Shown piece after piece: positions 849-6,938 of a stretch of DNA of 6,938 bases (the stretch's first letter is position 1; every line of letters begins with the position of its first letter). The notes under the pieces were generated by a model. It searched no databases. It saw only the letters and a list, made by a program, of their open reading frames with translations, and was not told the origin of the DNA. The position numbers were made by a program, and so were the translations under genes. The stretch is from an uncultured Bryobacterales bacterium (GTDB lineage: Bacteria; Acidobacteriota; Terriglobia; Bryobacterales; UBA6623), in NCBI GenBank assembly GCA_946887065.1, contig CAMPKL010000190.1, forward strand, positions 1 to 6,938, in the 5' to 3' direction.

Positions 849-3800
849 ATGTATAAAACAATACTTGCGTCATGCGCGCTCACTCTGCTGGCCGCTCTGC
901 CAAGTTTTGCCCAGAGCGGAGTAATCAGCGGAGTAGTGTATGGTCCAGGCGATACCCGGGAAGCGAACTTTATCATTCAGATTACGAGTGACCGCACCGG
1001 TGAAGAATTCGAGACCAGAACCAACGACAACGGTGAGTTTCGGCTGGGCGGATTGCAGCCCGGCGACTACCTGTTAACCAGCGACGTCGGACAAGAGGAA
1101 CCGGTGCGTTTCTCTGTTTCGAGCCTGAGGCCTGTCGAAGTCGTCGTGCATTCGTCGGCGGGAGGCGGTCTGCAGTCCGAAGTCAAATCCGAGGTCATGT
1201 CTGTGGCGCTGACGCCGCCGCAGGTCAGCGAATCATATCCACAGGGCGTTATCGACGAAGCGGTTCAGCCCGACTGGATCAACCCCAACGGGGAATTATA
1301 CGGCGCCTATAACCTGTCGCTTCTGGTGGAAGCAATACGTCCGCCGCTGGAGATCGGCAACATTGTAGCTCCCAGCGTTGCCGGCCGGCCGGGGGACGCG
1401 AATGACTTTTCCCTCGACGGAATCGACAATAACGATCGAACCATACCGGGTCCGTTGCTCTACCTGCCTGACGATGCGACGGAAGAATTCACCCTGCAGC
1501 AAAATGGTTTCGATCCAATATCCACTCATATTACTGGAGCCACCTTCAACTCGATCATTAGAAGCGGGGCCAACGATTGGCACGGCTCCGGCTATTGGTA
1601 TTTCCTGAATCACCAACTGAATGCCCGCGATGCCCGGCTGGATAACCTGGAATTGCAAGACCGCCCCCGGTTCTCTCAACACCGCGTGGGAGGCACATTG
1701 GGAGCGCCGATAATCGAGGATCGCCTCTTTGGAACAGTCAATCTCGAATATATTCCGCTAGGTCTTACTCGATATGCGGCCGGCCGCACGTTGTTCCCCA
1801 CGGAAACGGGTTTGCGACTATTAAGCAACAACCCGCGCGTGTCCCGGCGTAACTTGAACCTGCTCAATCCGGACCTGGCGACGACGTCCGCTATTGACAC
1901 CGTCAACGTCGACGGCGTCAGCATCCCGGTCGGGCTCGTGAGCCAGGGTTCTCTTGACACGACCGATACAATCGCCGGTTCGGCCGGTCTCGACTTCGTC
2001 GTGGATGAGGGCGATCGCATCACCGGACGTTACGTCCACAACGATGTCGAGGGCACGCTCCTCGGCGCCGCCGTTCCCGGATTTCGGACGTTGCGGGATA
2101 CGCAATCCACATTGGCGACGGTCGGCTACACGCATGCCGGCGCGGCATGGTGGGCGAACGATTTACGTTTGGGCTATACCCGGCTCGATACCGGCCTCAA
2201 TCCGGATGAGTTCGCTTTCGCGGACGGAACTGACGCACCGCTGATTTCGATTCAAGGCGTGGACCTGAACTTGGGGCCTCGCTACCCATTCCGCGATGCT
2301 AAGTTCAACACTTACCAACTCAACGACAACCTCACCCTCATGATGGGACGTCACGACATCAAGATCGGTATCGACGCACGTAGAATCATATCGAGCCAAA
2401 CTGGATTTCCGCAGTTCAGCGGAAACTACACCTACTCGTCATTGGAGCGATTCCTGCTTGATCGCAGCCCCGACGTGCAGGCGCAACGGGCGTTCGGCGA
2501 TCCCGCTTTGAACGCCAATCAATGGCTGATTCAAGGGTGGATCCAGGACCGCTACAAGCTCGCTTCGACGCTCACGCTCGAGATGGGTTTGCAATATCAG
2601 TGGGCCCAGTTGCCGGAATTCGTCCGCCGTCAGGGTTTGAATGCAGACCTGGACGTCGACGATATCGTTTCGTTCAACGAACCGAGTGAGGACCGCGACG
2701 GTTTCGGTCCTCGTGTCGGCATCGCCTATGCGCCGTTCCAAAGCTTCGTCGTCCGTGCCGGAGGCGGCGTACAGTACGACACGCTTTATCTGGCGAGCCG
2801 CATGTCGAGCTTGCTCGGCCCGCAGTCCGACCTCGTCACGATGTCGGATCCGCTTTCCACGACTTCCGGCTTCTTGAACTCCGGTCTGCAAAGGCCCAAC
2901 GATCCCCGCGGCCGTTTGGGAGCATTCTTTCCGGACCAAGAACTGCCCTATACCATCCACTGGAACGCCGGCGTTCAAGGCTCTTTGTGGAAAGGCTTAA
3001 CCGCGTCGGTTCGCTACATCGGCAATCGCAACGTGAATCAGCTGCGTTACTCAACCGCGAATCCCAATGGCTTCGTCAACGCCGAGCGTAACCTGCCGGT
3101 ATTCTTCAACGCGCCGAGCGCCGCTGAACTCAGCGAGCTCGATTTGACGTTGACCGATATTCGCAACATCGATCCCAGCGATGAGATCGCAGCGGGATTC
3201 ACGAATCCCGTCTTCGGGTTCGATCCGGTCGGAACGTCTTGGTATCACGCGGCCATAGCGGAGATCAACCAAAGCCTCGTACGCGGATTTCAAATGTCCG
3301 CTCGCTACACGCTGAGCGACCTGCAGATCGATAGCTACGGCACGCAGCTCGACCTCGGCTTCGATCGCTCAGGTCATTTCAACGCGCCTTTCAATCCCGA
3401 CCACCGGCTGACGCTGAGCGGCGTCATCGACGTAGCGGATATGTTCCCCGGCGGCGGCAACGTCTGGTCGAGGATCGTCGCGAACCTCTCCGTGATGGGC
3501 GCCTACACCTTTACCTCCGATATCGGACTTCCGCTGTCCAATGGGCTTGACACCAGTCTCACTGGCGTCGGCGCCGGCGCAGCGATTTTCGAGAATCGCG
3601 ATTCATCCACAAGCCTTGGCACGGGAGTCGTGCCGTTGCGCAATAACGCGGGGCAAATCGTTGCCTACCGCGCCAGCAATCCGAACGCACGTTTCGTCCA
3701 AGGAGGCATCGGCTCGTTCTCAACGGGTCAGTCCTTCATCGACCTGGACCAGTCGCATAATTTCGACGTCGCGGCCGCGAAGAAATTCACCTTCGTGGAA

Positions 3801-4010
3801 GACCTGACGTTTGAATTCCGGGCCGAGGCCTACAACGTGCTCAACACTAGACAGACGACAGGCTATGCGCTCCATGGTTTGGCGACGCCCAGCCTTTCTC
3901 TGTTTACGCCCAGTCAGCTAGTGCCTAGTTCGGCGAACTTCGGCGACTTAAATTCGCTGTTCTCGTCGAATCCTCGCAGGTTGCAACTGGCCCTGCGACT
4001 GACCTTCTAG
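849..4010 (+). CDS. Oar-like TonB-dependent outer-membrane receptor with carboxypeptidase-regulatory-like domain
   Basis: The 1053-residue product is a large outer-membrane beta-barrel that probably imports a bulky ligand (glycan, peptide or siderophore) using TonB energy; the ligand cannot be told from sequence. Order of parts: signal peptide (1-21, predicted cut SFA|Q, so the mature protein starts with Gln22); a Cna-B/carboxypeptidase-regulatory-like beta domain (about 24-100; TNDNGEFRLGGLQPGDY at 58-74); a plug with SVAGRPGDANDFSLDGIDNND (split here as SVAGRPG at 176-182 and DGIDNND at 190-196) and SIIRSGANDWHGS (235-247); barrel entry with RVGGTLGAPI (279-288); then long barrel strands such as ELPYTIHWNAGVQ near 700 and FNPDHRLTLSGV near 848. 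The C-terminal RLQLALRLTF ends in Phe, as expected for BAM-dependent insertion. No obvious TonB box was found. The start at 849 is supported by GAGGAAA at 836-842. The gene appears monocistronic and convergent with the kinase operon. The 5' third looks less GC-biased in codon use than the rest (by eye). Confidence 0.9.
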   Translation: MYKTILASCALTLLAALPSFAQSGVISGVVYGPGDTREANFIIQITSDRTGEEFETRTNDNGEFRLGGLQPGDYLLTSDVGQEEPVRFSVSSLRPVEVVVHSSAGGGLQSEVKSEVMSVALTPPQVSESYPQGVIDEAVQPDWINPNGELYGAYNLSLLVEAIRPPLEIGNIVAPSVAGRPGDANDFSLDGIDNNDRTIPGPLLYLPDDATEEFTLQQNGFDPISTHITGATFNSIIRSGANDWHGSGYWYFLNHQLNARDARLDNLELQDRPRFSQHRVGGTLGAPIIEDRLFGTVNLEYIPLGLTRYAAGRTLFPTETGLRLLSNNPRVSRRNLNLLNPDLATTSAIDTVNVDGVSIPVGLVSQGSLDTTDTIAGSAGLDFVVDEGDRITGRYVHNDVEGTLLGAAVPGFRTLRDTQSTLATVGYTHAGAAWWANDLRLGYTRLDTGLNPDEFAFADGTDAPLISIQGVDLNLGPRYPFRDAKFNTYQLNDNLTLMMGRHDIKIGIDARRIISSQTGFPQFSGNYTYSSLERFLLDRSPDVQAQRAFGDPALNANQWLIQGWIQDRYKLASTLTLEMGLQYQWAQLPEFVRRQGLNADLDVDDIVSFNEPSEDRDGFGPRVGIAYAPFQSFVVRAGGGVQYDTLYLASRMSSLLGPQSDLVTMSDPLSTTSGFLNSGLQRPNDPRGRLGAFFPDQELPYTIHWNAGVQGSLWKGLTASVRYIGNRNVNQLRYSTANPNGFVNAERNLPVFFNAPSAAELSELDLTLTDIRNIDPSDEIAAGFTNPVFGFDPVGTSWYHAAIAEINQSLVRGFQMSARYTLSDLQIDSYGTQLDLGFDRSGHFNAPFNPDHRLTLSGVIDVADMFPGGGNVWSRIVANLSVMGAYTFTSDIGLPLSNGLDTSLTGVGAGAAIFENRDSSTSLGTGVVPLRNNAGQIVAYRASNPNARFVQGGIGSFSTGQSFIDLDQSHNFDVAAAKKFTFVEDLTFEFRAEAYNVLNTRQTTGYALHGLATPSLSLFTPSQLVPSSANFGDLNSLFSSNPRRLQLALRLTF

Positions 4011-4021
4011 GCGACTAGCGT

Positions 4022-4074
4022 TTGAGGGCGCGTTCGGAATTCCGCCCACCCGGAACATCCGATCGCGCCCTCAA
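4022..4074. terminator. Composite stem-loop between convergent genes, probable bidirectional terminator
   Basis: TTGAGGGCGCG (4022-4032) pairs perfectly with CGCGCCCTCAA (4064-4074). Inside it TCGG (4034-4037) pairs with CCGA (4059-4062), and TTCCG (4040-4044) pairs with CGGAA (4051-4055) around the loop CCCACC. This makes 20 base pairs with one T-T mismatch and a small AA/CAT internal loop. The structure begins 11 nt after the receptor stop. On the - strand its first arm contains the TGA stop of the kinase (4073-4071). Neither side carries a strong T run, so termination may be imperfect or may need Rho; it could also protect the mRNA 3' end. Confidence 0.65.
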
Positions 4075-5003
4075 TCTAATCCTTGCCGTGCCAGCACCGC
4101 CGCCCCCTGCGCCACGACCCGCTCGCCTAGTTCACTCACCGCCATCCGCCAATGATCCCGAAAATAAGGCGTAATCAGCGGACGCATCCTGCGCTCGACT
4201 TGCTCCAAATAGTCCGGATTCCCTGCGCCCAGTCCTCCGCCGATCACGATCAACTCTGGGGCAAACAGGCTGACCACCGCAGCCAGCCCCTGCGCCAGGC
4301 CATTCGCCGCGAGTTCCACCGTGCGCGCCGCCAGTGCATCGCCTGCCCGCCAAGCCTCCAAGATCTCGCGCGCATCCGCGAACGGGTTGTCGCCGCCGTT
4401 CAACCACCCCGCCGTCGCGTGCAGCCCCGGCCCGGAGGACAGCGCTTCGACGCAACCGCAGCCGCCGCAAACGCAGGGCGGGCCCTGCGGCAGCACCTGG
4501 ATGTGCCCCAACTCGCATTCGCCCCGGGGACTCAGCTCGACGATCTTTCCGTCCCGCACAAATCCCCCGCCGATTCCCGTGCCAAGGGTCACGTAGAAAA
4601 CCGACCGCGCCTCCCGGCCGGCGCCGAAATGCGCTTCGCCCAATGCCGCGACCTTACAGTCGTTGTCGACCGCCGCGGGCAATTCAAACACCTCCGTGAG
4701 CCGCCCAGCAATATGAAAGTCTTCCCAGCCGGGCTCGTGCAAACAGACCAGCGGATGTCCGGACGCGCGATCGAAACCGCCGCCGTAGCCGAAACCGATC
4801 GCCGCGAACGCCGATCCCTGCTTTTCGTACTTGGCGCGCAGCGTTTGTCCCGCGGTTATGAGCCGCGCCAGGCTCTGCTCGCCGCGATGCTCGGCGACGC
4901 GCGGAAACACATCGACCTCCAGCAGCCTCGCATCCGGCCCGGCGACCCCGGCTACAAGCTTGGTTCCGCCGGTTTCAAAAACGAGGTAGTGGTCTGCGCT
5001 CAC
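4071..5003 (-). CDS. ROK-family sugar kinase (glucokinase/fructokinase-like)
   Basis: The 310-residue product has the usual length of a ROK kinase, a cytoplasmic enzyme that phosphorylates a hexose using ATP. The N-terminal phosphate-binding loop is ETGGTK (10-15). VDND at 112-115 supplies the sugar-binding Asn114 and the catalytic base Asp115. TLGTGIGGG (139-147) is the second phosphate loop. ELGH (164-167) and the zinc motif CVCGGCGCVE (177-186, C-x-C-G-x-x-G-C-x-E) give the expected zinc ligands H167, C177, C179 and C184. There is no N-terminal helix-turn-helix, so it is a kinase rather than a ROK repressor. The start is GTG at 5003, overlapping the stop of the upstream cyclase-like gene by 4 nt (GTGA). 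AAGGAA lies 14 nt upstream, rather far, so translational coupling is likely. Glu10 replaces the commoner Asp, as in some fructokinases, while the cysteine motif is of the glucokinase type. The substrate is therefore open. Confidence 0.9.
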   Translation of the reverse strand: MSADHYLVFETGGTKLVAGVAGPDARLLEVDVFPRVAEHRGEQSLARLITAGQTLRAKYEKQGSAFAAIGFGYGGGFDRASGHPLVCLHEPGWEDFHIAGRLTEVFELPAAVDNDCKVAALGEAHFGAGREARSVFYVTLGTGIGGGFVRDGKIVELSPRGECELGHIQVLPQGPPCVCGGCGCVEALSSGPGLHATAGWLNGGDNPFADAREILEAWRAGDALAARTVELAANGLAQGLAAVVSLFAPELIVIGGGLGAGNPDYLEQVERRMRPLITPYFRDHWRMAVSELGERVVAQGAAVLARQGLD

Positions 5004-5899
5004 GGACGTTGGGCAAGTTCCTTCAGCGATTCATCGATCACGTGCAGCACCACGGCCAGGCTCCGTGCGCTCAGCTTGTCGATCGTGTCGGACTCCTCGT
5101 GCCAATGGCGATTCAGCAACCCGTAGTTGAAATCGATCAAGTCGACGGCCGGCATGCCGCGCTGAGTGAACTCGACGTGGTCGTCGGCGACGTATTGGAT
5201 CGGGCCGCTCTCGAACTCGTCCGTGTAGCCGAGCCGGCGAGTGACGCCGACGACCAAGTCGCGCAGCCAAGGCGTGGAGTAACCTTCGTAGTGAATGGAG
5301 AGATCGCTGTCGCCGACCATGTCGACGTTGATGATCGCCTTGATCGACTTGGCCGAGCCGTCGCGCTGCCAGCGTTCGGCCAGATACCGGCTGCCGTAGG
5401 TGTGGTCGTTGCCTTCCCACTCCACGGTCGACTCTTCGCCGTCGAAGAACGTCAGCCACACGCCGTCTCGCAGTGTGCGGCCCTGCATCATTCCCGCAAG
5501 CGCCAGCAGAGCGCCCGTCGAAGAGCCGCCGTCATTGGCGCCCACGAAGTTGAGACCCGTGCGCGAGTAGGTATCGTAATGACCCGAGATGACCACGTTC
5601 TTGCCGCTCGTTCCGGCGAATTTGCCGAGGATGTTCTTCATCCGCTTCGGGCCCAGGGGCGTGTACGACGTAAAGTCGATCTCTTGCACCACGGCGCCAT
5701 TCTTCTTCAACTCGGCGATGATCCACGCCTGCTGCTTGGACTGTGCGGCGGAGCCCGCCGGCCGCGGCCCGAACTTCACCGCCGCGGCAACGTAGTTCAG
5801 CGCCTTCTGGCCCGCGCGAGCATAGTTCGGCGGGGGTTCGGCAGCTTGCGCAACCGCGCTCAACAGCAGCGTTAGGCAGATGGTTTTCGCGCGATGCAT
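5000..5899 (-). CDS. Secreted M28-fold zinc enzyme, glutaminyl-peptide cyclotransferase-like
   Basis: The 299-residue product starts with a signal peptide (MHRAKTICLTLLLSAVAQA). Cleavage is plausible after AVA (17, leaving Gln18) or after AQA (19). The M28 metal-site residues are present: H107/D109 in GHYDT, D123 in VGANDGG, E155-E156 in FFDGEE, D193 in NVDMVGD and H267 in HWHEESD. Several marks point to animal-type glutaminyl cyclase, which converts N-terminal Gln to pyroglutamate. These are a Trp five residues after the second Glu (W161), followed by YGSRYLA; ADDHVEFTQRGMP around 238-250; Trp directly before the last His (W266-H267); and EIDFTSYTPLGP after the first helix. Aminopeptidases of the fold usually lack this Trp pair. 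The same residues leave an M28 aminopeptidase possible. The frame is open to a GTG at 6004, but the ATG at 5899 is preferred because of the signal peptide; no strong Shine-Dalgarno precedes it. It overlaps the upstream methyltransferase by 28 nt. Confidence 0.85.
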   Translation of the reverse strand: MHRAKTICLTLLLSAVAQAAEPPPNYARAGQKALNYVAAAVKFGPRPAGSAAQSKQQAWIIAELKKNGAVVQEIDFTSYTPLGPKRMKNILGKFAGTSGKNVVISGHYDTYSRTGLNFVGANDGGSSTGALLALAGMMQGRTLRDGVWLTFFDGEESTVEWEGNDHTYGSRYLAERWQRDGSAKSIKAIINVDMVGDSDLSIHYEGYSTPWLRDLVVGVTRRLGYTDEFESGPIQYVADDHVEFTQRGMPAVDLIDFNYGLLNRHWHEESDTIDKLSARSLAVVLHVIDESLKELAQRP

Positions 5900-6576
5900 C
5901 GGTAAGCCAACGTGAAGTCCTTGTTTGAGTCTAGAAAATCTAAAGACGGGATCAACAGCGCCGCGGGTACAACAGCGGCGGCAACAAACGGAAACGCCAA
6001 CCACCGCACTCCGCCCTGGAAGAAGTTCAGCGAACCCGTCAGCCGCCGCGCCAGCAAGGCGAAGTAGCCGCCCATCGGCTCGACGGACTCCAGCGTTAAG
6101 CTGGCCCTATGGCACAATTCCTGCAAGCCATACCGCGTGAAGCGGAAGTAGTCGTGCGGCGCCTGATGCACTTCCCACTGTTGCGGAGCGATGAGCAGCA
6201 ATTTGCCTCCCGGCTTAAGCACCCGCGCGATCTCGCCTAACGCCAGGTCAGGGCGGGGCAGGTGCTCCAACACCACGACGTTCAGCGCCGCATCGAACGA
6301 ATCTGCCGCCAAAGGGATGGCCGCCAAATCGCCCACGCAATCGATACCGGCGTAGTCCCAGGCCTCATCGCCCACCGCCAGGTCCACCGCCACATAGGCG
6401 CAATGCCCGAATGCCGCGCGGTGGCGGCTCTCGCCCGCGCCCGCATCGAGCACCCGCGAACCGTGGGGCAGCCCAGCGGAAAACTCCGCAACCGATCGCT
6501 CGATCACCGCCTCAACCGCCATCAAGCGGTTGCGCAAAAAACCGGGGACGAACTTGCCGAAGCGGCGCTCCAGCAC
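5872..6576 (-). CDS. Class I SAM-dependent methyltransferase with hydrophobic C-terminal segment
   Basis: The 234-residue product is complete. Motif I is VLDAGAGES (42-50), with the acidic residue at the end of strand 2 in VAVDLA (D65). Further marks are GDLAAIPLAADSFDAAL (82-98), VLEHLPRPD (102-110) and RVLKPGGKLLLIAPQ (118-132), all typical of the Methyltransf_11 type. APHDYFRFTRYGL (139-151) recurs in methyltransferases often found in glycan or cell-surface loci; that association is general knowledge, not shown here. A hydrophobic stretch at about 190-212 could be a membrane anchor or amphipathic helix. The start is GTG at 6576, with AGGGAG 9 nt upstream, one base after the stop of the preceding gene. 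The end overlaps the cyclase-like gene by 28 nt. The substrate is unknown. Confidence 0.88.
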   Translation of the reverse strand: MLERRFGKFVPGFLRNRLMAVEAVIERSVAEFSAGLPHGSRVLDAGAGESRHRAAFGHCAYVAVDLAVGDEAWDYAGIDCVGDLAAIPLAADSFDAALNVVVLEHLPRPDLALGEIARVLKPGGKLLLIAPQQWEVHQAPHDYFRFTRYGLQELCHRASLTLESVEPMGGYFALLARRLTGSLNFFQGGVRWLAFPFVAAAVVPAALLIPSLDFLDSNKDFTLAYRCIARKPSA

Positions 6577-6577
6577 C

Positions 6578-6938
6578 TCAGCCGTCTCCCTCGCGGACCG
6601 CTTCGATCATGATGCTTGAGCCCGCTGCCGCCGTCGCCTCCAGCAAAGTGAACGGAGCCGAGGCGGCAACCAGTCCTAGATAGAGAAGGTTCTTGACCAT
6701 CGAGCTCAGCCCGCTCTCTTTTACGCCGCGCACCTTGCGCGATACCGGTTCCAGCGACGGCACGAGACTGGTGGCCAGGCCGGCCGGATTGTCTCGCAGC
6801 GAAAAGAACTTCTTTCGTTTGACGCTAAACCCGGAATATTCAAGTAATTCTTGAAGATCCTTGGCGCTGAAATTGATCAAGTGCCTGGGGATGTCGAAGC
6901 CGCTCCAGCGCTCGCCCAGCAAAAGCATCTGCCAGCAT
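6578..6938 (-). CDS. SAM-dependent methyltransferase, C-terminal fragment
   Basis: The frame is open to the right edge, so the 5' end of the gene lies outside; the ATG at 6928 is almost certainly internal. About 119 residues are visible. LGERWSGFDIPRHLINFSAKDLQ followed by LLEYSGF (given in parts: GERWSGFDIPRHL and LLEYSGF) is the typical C-terminal region of Methyltransf_23-type enzymes, where the usual form is W-x-G-x-x-x-P-R-H-L-x-x-F-S. The SAM-binding motifs must lie upstream, outside the window. A hydrophobic stretch (LLYLGLVAASAPFTLLEA) near the C-terminus parallels that of the next gene. The TGA stop at 6580-6578 is one base from the GTG of the downstream methyltransferase, so the two are co-transcribed. 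Family assignment without motif I is good but not certain; the substrate is unknown. Confidence 0.75.
   Translation of the reverse strand, partial: CWQMLLLGERWSGFDIPRHLINFSAKDLQELLEYSGFSVKRKKFFSLRDNPAGLATSLVPSLEPVSRKVRGVKESGLSSMVKNLLYLGLVAASAPFTLLEATAAAGSSIMIEAVREGDG
6586..6591 (-). promoter_or_regulatory. Shine-Dalgarno of the complete methyltransferase gene
   Basis: On the - strand AGGGAG lies 9 nt before the GTG at 6576 and inside the end of the preceding gene. It supports the GTG start and the tight coupling of the two methyltransferase genes. Confidence 0.55.

What the first reader, a model, noticed from the sequence alone, without database searches (positions are those of the whole stretch)
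849..5899. Exported proteins predicted to begin with Gln beside an exported glutaminyl cyclase: a possible Q-rule outside Bacteroidetes
The receptor has its best signal-peptidase site at SFA|Q, leaving Gln at the mature N-terminus. The cyclase-like protein has an AVA|Q site as one of its two plausible cuts. In Bacteroidetes a strong preference for Gln after signal peptidase I cleavage (the Q-rule) has been reported and linked to pyroglutamate formation by cyclase. The pair in this window suggests the same N-terminal capping of the secretome here. Two proteins cannot prove a rule, and the second site is ambiguous.
Basis: partly seen in the sequence, partly recalled or inferred. Interest (0 to 1): 0.7.

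Follow-up and report, generated by a model that had tools for sequence, protein, structure and literature searches.

The report
N-terminal glutamine rule in Acidobacteriota exports
Many exported proteins of soil bacteria of the phylum Acidobacteriota are predicted to start with glutamine once their signal peptide is removed, and these bacteria carry enzymes that could cap such ends, a habit so far described as typical of Bacteroidetes.

Summary
The window comes from an unnamed Acidobacteriota genome (cyclase 90% identical to one in MAG casp40-mb.95). It encodes an Oar-like TonB receptor whose mature end is most likely Gln (SFA|Q) and an exported type II glutaminyl cyclase (QC); best solved match 'Acidobacteriales bacterium glutaminyl cyclase'. 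The QC's own AVA|Q site is its weaker one.

Gln at +1: closest genome 26 of 68 (mature Gln 4.5%, p 6e-18); seven QC-bearing acidobacteria 73 of 216; Granulicella tundricola 20 of 38. Controls: Prevotella 7 of 17, E. coli 3 of 26, acidobacteria without detected QC 1 of 20.

So a Q-rule-like bias is real but uneven (17-53%). Against a simple reading: the receptor is not beside the QC in the closest relative, and Oar-like receptors carry Gln at +1 even where no QC was detected. Pyroglutamate is inferred. My searches found no paper reporting this for Acidobacteriota.

The parts
849..4010 (+). Oar-like TonB-dependent receptor (PF25183 barrel, CarboxypepD_reg-like N-terminus)
   Evidence: 'Oar-like' is a recalled name
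849..911 (+). signal peptide of the receptor, predicted cut SFA|Q
   Evidence: site supported by homologues
912..914 (+). codon of the predicted N-terminal Gln (residue 22) of the mature receptor
   Evidence: sequence; Gln follows Ala or Ser in 12 of the 13 closest homologues (by eye)
5000..5899 (-). exported type II (animal-type, M28-fold) glutaminyl cyclase, 299 aa
5843..5899 (-). signal peptide of the cyclase; cut AQA|A (0.68) preferred to AVA|Q (0.18; Gln codon 5846-5848)
5872..6576 (-). SAM-dependent methyltransferase, overlaps the start of the cyclase gene by 28 bases; a relative lies beside the QC in 12 of 29 other loci
6578..6937 (-). C-terminal part of an upstream gene (no Pfam hit; reads to me like the end of a methyltransferase), with a relative upstream of the QC in 25 of 29 other loci
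4071..5003 (-). ROK-family protein, start overlaps the stop of the cyclase by 4 bases; kept beside it in the closest relative

Best explanation
QC-bearing Acidobacteriota, including the organism of this window, follow a Q-rule-like pattern. Signal peptidase I cuts many Sec substrates, among them most Oar-like TonB receptors, just before a Gln. A periplasm-facing glutaminyl cyclase (type II here, the unrelated type I in some relatives) then probably turns that Gln into pyroglutamate, shielding exported proteins from aminopeptidases. Shown here by computation: Gln excess at the predicted +1, export signal and family identity of the cyclase. Inferred: the actual cut, cyclisation, and protection.
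Against: The caller is home-made; SignalP was not available, and only parts of each genome were read. Values vary (17-53%) and four of seven QC-bearing genomes lie below 35%, under the >48% printed for 332 of 334 Bacteroidetes. In G004 Gln only ties with Val, in G197 with Ala and Gly. The QC-less set is small (1/20; 2/26 with PF00144 loci) and E. coli without receptors differs only at p 0.04. Receptors with CarboxypepD_reg of QC-less genomes also carry Gln (10 of 19 best site, 15 of 19 reachable), so Gln at +1 does not need a detected QC. Phylum-wide the two QC types are not complementary: both occur in 21 of 159 genomes, about 15 expected (odds ratio 2.2, p 0.04), and 81 of 159 show neither. 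No N-terminal proteomics.
Confidence: 0.7

Rival explanations
1. The Gln excess reflects a preference of acidobacterial signal peptidase I or of the export route, not capping; the QC serves other substrates.
For: CarboxypepD_reg receptors start with Gln even in genomes without detected QC; values differ between QC-bearing genomes.
Against: Proteins other than Oar-like receptors show 1/20 Gln in QC-less acidobacteria against 68/208 in QC-bearing ones; Asn, the closest chemical analogue, is not enriched.
Confidence: 0.16
2. Family inheritance only: Gln is an old start of Oar-like receptors, and the window pair shows nothing more.
For: Of 120 listed homologues of the window receptor (itself included) 84 have a called signal peptide and 78 of these a reachable Gln start; Gln start independent of QC genotype.
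Against: Explains the receptor but not the rest: 25 of 67 non-Oar exported proteins of G001 and 18 of 31 of Granulicella start with Gln, spread over many sequence clusters.
Confidence: 0.07
3. Artefact of site calling: polar Gln after Ala-X-Ala marks the end of the c-region and is picked too often.
For: Sites are ambiguous in many proteins; the receptor itself splits 0.46/0.33.
Against: Same caller gives E. coli 3/26; Asn, Asp, Glu and Lys at +1 reach at most about twice expectation in the QC-bearing acidobacteria. Prevotella comes out at 7 of 17, below the printed Bacteroidetes range, so any error is more likely an undercount.
Confidence: 0.06
4. The 'cyclase' is an ordinary M28 aminopeptidase.
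Confidence: 0.05

Closest known systems
Bacteroidetes Q-rule (Bochtler et al. 2018, PMC5837995; Szczesniak et al. 2023, PMC10653852)
   Same: Gln is the commonest residue after signal peptidase I cleavage; exported QC present; receptors and other exported proteins included.
   Different: Another phylum; more variable and mostly lower Gln fraction with my caller; pyroglutamate not shown. The 2018 paper reports scattered high values outside Bacteroidetes (e.g. Ignavibacterium album 77%, some cyanobacteria) but neither main text holds the word Acidobacteri.
Type II (animal-type) glutaminyl cyclases: 7d18 (Acidobacteriales bacterium), P. gingivalis 6qql/7cjg, human QC 2afm
   Same: Fold, length, presumed metal and catalytic residues.
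   Different: 35% identical to 7d18 and 22% to human QC in the structural alignments; simple signal peptide here, lipobox-like motif in some relatives.
CarboxypepD_reg (Oar-like) TonB-dependent receptors of Acidobacteriota
   Same: Domain order, length and Gln start.
   Different: This copy is not beside the QC in the closest relative.
Type I (plant-type) QC, PF05096
   Same: Found in relatives, including the eight larger relatives without type II.
   Different: Unrelated fold (recalled); not found in G001.

Membership tests
Type II glutaminyl cyclase | M28-type fold closest to solved QCs | tested here: met
Type II glutaminyl cyclase | Zinc ligands Asp/Glu/His and catalytic Glu/Asp residues | tested here: met
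   D123, E155, E156, D193, D197, D239, D240, H267 invariant in 21 sequences and present in the printed alignments with 7d18 and Drosophila QC, except that Drosophila QC lacks D197 and its gapped alignment does not place H267 clearly; roles assigned from recalled human QC numbering
Type II glutaminyl cyclase | Active-site Trp residues thought to set QCs apart from M28 aminopeptidases | tested here: inconclusive
   W161 and W266 invariant in the 21 sequences, but 7d18 has His at the W266 place and the role of the Trp residues is recalled
Type II glutaminyl cyclase | Cyclase activity | not testable with these tools
   needs an assay
Q-rule | Gln the commonest +1 residue, far above mature background | tested here: met
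   sole top in five of seven QC-bearing genomes and Granulicella, tied in G004 (with Val) and G197 (with Ala and Gly); 4.8- to 16-fold over background
Q-rule | About half or more of SPI substrates with Gln at +1 | tested here: inconclusive
   53% Granulicella, 52% G039, 45% G023, but 17-38% in five others; the caller gives only 41% for Prevotella (7 of 17)
Q-rule | Exported QC in the same genome | tested here: met
   window; type II in 32 of 41 genomes, type I in 8 of the other 9; export signals were checked for type II only
Q-rule | Exposed Gln converted to pyroglutamate | not testable with these tools
   needs N-terminal proteomics
Bacteroidetes Q-rule as phylum trait | Organism belongs to Bacteroidetes | tested here: not met
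   closest relative found is an Acidobacteria MAG

The most novel reading that the evidence does not exclude
Acidobacteriota, at least the lineages around this genome and Granulicella, have a secretome-wide N-terminal pyroglutamate cap of their own, kept up by whichever of two unrelated cyclases a lineage holds, so that the Q-rule is a trait of envelope-rich, TonB-receptor-rich bacteria and not of Bacteroidetes alone.
Probability: 0.4. Interest if true: 0.8.

Novelty: new member of a known kind. Interest (0 to 1): 0.68.

Why it matters
The 2023 paper calls Bacteroidetes 'unique among procaryotes' in this and links it to the proteolytic pressure around P. gingivalis and its kin (passages). A second large phylum of mostly soil bacteria with the same bias would strain that explanation, would make cyclase activity a candidate essential function in Acidobacteriota, and would tell annotators to expect blocked N-termini. 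Two unrelated cyclases in one phylum, with lineages that seem to lack both, give a natural experiment for asking whether Gln at +1 follows the enzyme or precedes it.

Tried and rejected
EM training of the signal-peptide model drifted: it learned Gln at -2 and Cys at -3, so I dropped it for fixed weights with +1 and -2 flat and later Gln/Asn symmetric weights. Its numbers (Gln 30 of 105, 10 of 47, 17 of 64) point the same way but are not used. The label swap tests little, because the weights are symmetric by then. Receptor/QC adjacency as a functional link: rejected; L001 has ROK and FAD-oxidase with no receptor between. Complementarity of QC types as phylum-wide evidence: rejected; it holds among 41 genomes (p 1e-4, not corrected for kinship) but not in the phylum sample. 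A matched-family comparison with PF00144 could be made only for QC-less genomes: 12 loci, 6 called non-lipoprotein exports, 1 with Gln. The QC genotype of Granulicella could not be found; its FlhA has no close match in the 159-genome sample (top match 67% identity). Papers: PMC5837995 seen as passages and section 16; PMC10653852 as passages, parts of the abstract among them; all others as search listings only. Searches joining Acidobacteri with glutaminyl cyclase, Acidobacteri with pyroglutam and signal peptid, and Solibacter with glutamine and signal peptide cleavage gave 0, 5 and 0 papers; I did not open the five, whose titles and abstract starts are on other subjects. Two further searches, for 7d18 and for pyroglutamate in soil bacteria, gave none. 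Supplements could not be read.

Full report
Setting. No whole genome is held for the window. Its QC-like protein finds one relative in the species genomes, 90% identical, in Acidobacteria MAG casp40-mb.95 (L001, genome G001). Genes: end of an FAD-linked oxidase (+), the receptor (849-4010, +), then on the minus strand a ROK-family gene, the QC, a methyltransferase and the end of an upstream gene that reads like a second one but has no Pfam hit.

The two sites. The receptor's SFA|Q is not a clear first by my model (0.33 against 0.46 for AQS|G). Of 120 listed homologues (221 found; the window protein is one of them) 84 have a called signal peptide, 55 of them with Gln at the best site and 78 with Gln at a site of at least 5% (next residue Gly, 27). 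The QC's AVA|Q is second to AQA|A (0.18 against 0.68); Gln is the best +1 in 7 of its 22 relatives with a called signal peptide.

Secretome test. I wrote a gene finder and a semi-Markov signal-peptide model (n, h and c regions, -3 and -1 preferences, competing TM anchor) in which residue +1 has background emission, so that it cannot choose Gln sites by their Gln. Only parts of the genomes were read: 656 kb of G001 (in part contigs chosen because they hold M28 genes), 400 kb each of G007 and G029, 200 kb each of G004, G039, G023, G197 and G068, about 179 kb of G062, also from contigs with M28-like matches. Dropped before counting: calls with posterior under 0.6, lipobox matches, proteins with a further hydrophobic segment, gene calls under 90 aa, and five gene calls of G197 with masked N-termini. 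Gln at +1 of all remaining SPI proteins: G001 26/68, G007 12/38, G004 4/23, G039 13/25 (type II QC); G029 6/27, G023 9/20, G197 3/15 (type I QC); total 73/216. Mature Gln is 3.2-4.5% in these genomes, so the excess is 4.8- to 16-fold; p from 6e-18 (G001) to 0.02 (G197). Asn totals 5 of 216. In G004 Gln ties with Val (4 each) and in G197 with Ala and Gly (3 each). Granulicella tundricola MP5ACTX9 (245 kb of two plasmids; QC genotype unknown) gives 20/38.

Controls by the same caller. Prevotella sp. oral taxon 299 (Bacteroidota) 7/17; the 2018 paper gives >48% for 332 of 334 Bacteroidetes by SignalP, so the caller may undercount, though 17 proteins are few. E. coli K-12 3/26. QC-less acidobacteria G068 0/5 and G062 1/15. 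Earlier weights give the same picture. Oar-like receptors by a sequence pattern: 5 of 8 with Gln at the best site in the seven genomes, 2 of 7 in Granulicella. Without them 68/208 remain against 1/20 (p 0.009) and 3/25 in E. coli (p 0.04). Weighting by BLAST cluster leaves 0.37, 0.25, 0.53, 0.50 and 0.57 in G001, G007, G039, G023 and Granulicella, the five examined.

QC distribution. Of 41 genomes (G001 and 40 relatives) 32 have a strong type II match (E <= 1.1e-47); seven of the other nine have only weak M28-like matches and two none. Type I is over Pfam's cut-off in 13. Five have both; one (G002, 1.8 Mb, a type I match under the cut-off) neither; the other eight without type II have type I (p 1e-4 for exclusion, kinship not corrected). 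In a phylum sample of 159, type II (E <= 1e-25) is in 56, type I in 43, both in 21, neither in 81, a slight positive association (p 0.04), so exclusion is not general. 'Neither' includes small genomes. Of ten of them checked with a QC alignment, three had no match and seven only weak ones (best E 7e-16); G068 and G062 are of those seven.

Result against a simple reading. Receptors with CarboxypepD_reg: I fetched 20 N-termini each from QC-less, type II and type I genomes. Among those with a called signal peptide, Gln is the best site in 10 of 19, 6 of 11 and 11 of 13, and reachable in 15, 9 and 13. So the Gln start of these receptors is a family trait that does not need a detected QC: it may be older than the loss of QC, or a cyclase escaped the searches, or spontaneous cyclisation suffices, or Gln has another use.

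Neighbourhood. In L001 the QC and ROK genes are followed by the FAD-oxidase with no receptor between. What is conserved is upstream: the 6578-6937 protein has a relative upstream of the QC in 25 of 29 loci (L009-L037) and the methyltransferase in 12. In the window methyltransferase and QC overlap by 28 bases and QC and ROK by 4, which suggests one transcript.

Judgement. A Q-rule-like excess in Acidobacteriota is well supported by computation; its strength is uneven; pyroglutamate and purpose are inferred. In print, high Q-values outside Bacteroidetes exist as scattered cases, while the 2023 paper calls the trait exclusive; neither main text names Acidobacteria, and searches found no paper on it. 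I therefore class it as a new member of a known kind.

Noticed in passing
window 4071-6937 (-): A gene end that reads like a methyltransferase, a methyltransferase, the QC and a ROK-family gene lie head to tail, the last three with overlapping ends; a relative of the first is upstream of the QC in 25 of 29 other loci. Why a cyclase travels with methyltransferases is unknown.
   Followed up: partly
G001-G041: The eight larger genomes without type II QC all have the unrelated type I QC, as if one replaced the other; they may be one clade.
   Followed up: partly
L192-L211: CarboxypepD_reg receptors start with Gln even in acidobacterial genomes in which no QC of either type was detected.
   Followed up: partly
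L009, L010, L011, L016, L018: In several relatives the QC itself has a lipobox-like motif and may be a lipoprotein.
   Followed up: no
L001:1883-2704: The closest relative lacks the receptor at this place, so the receptor was gained or lost since they parted.
   Followed up: no
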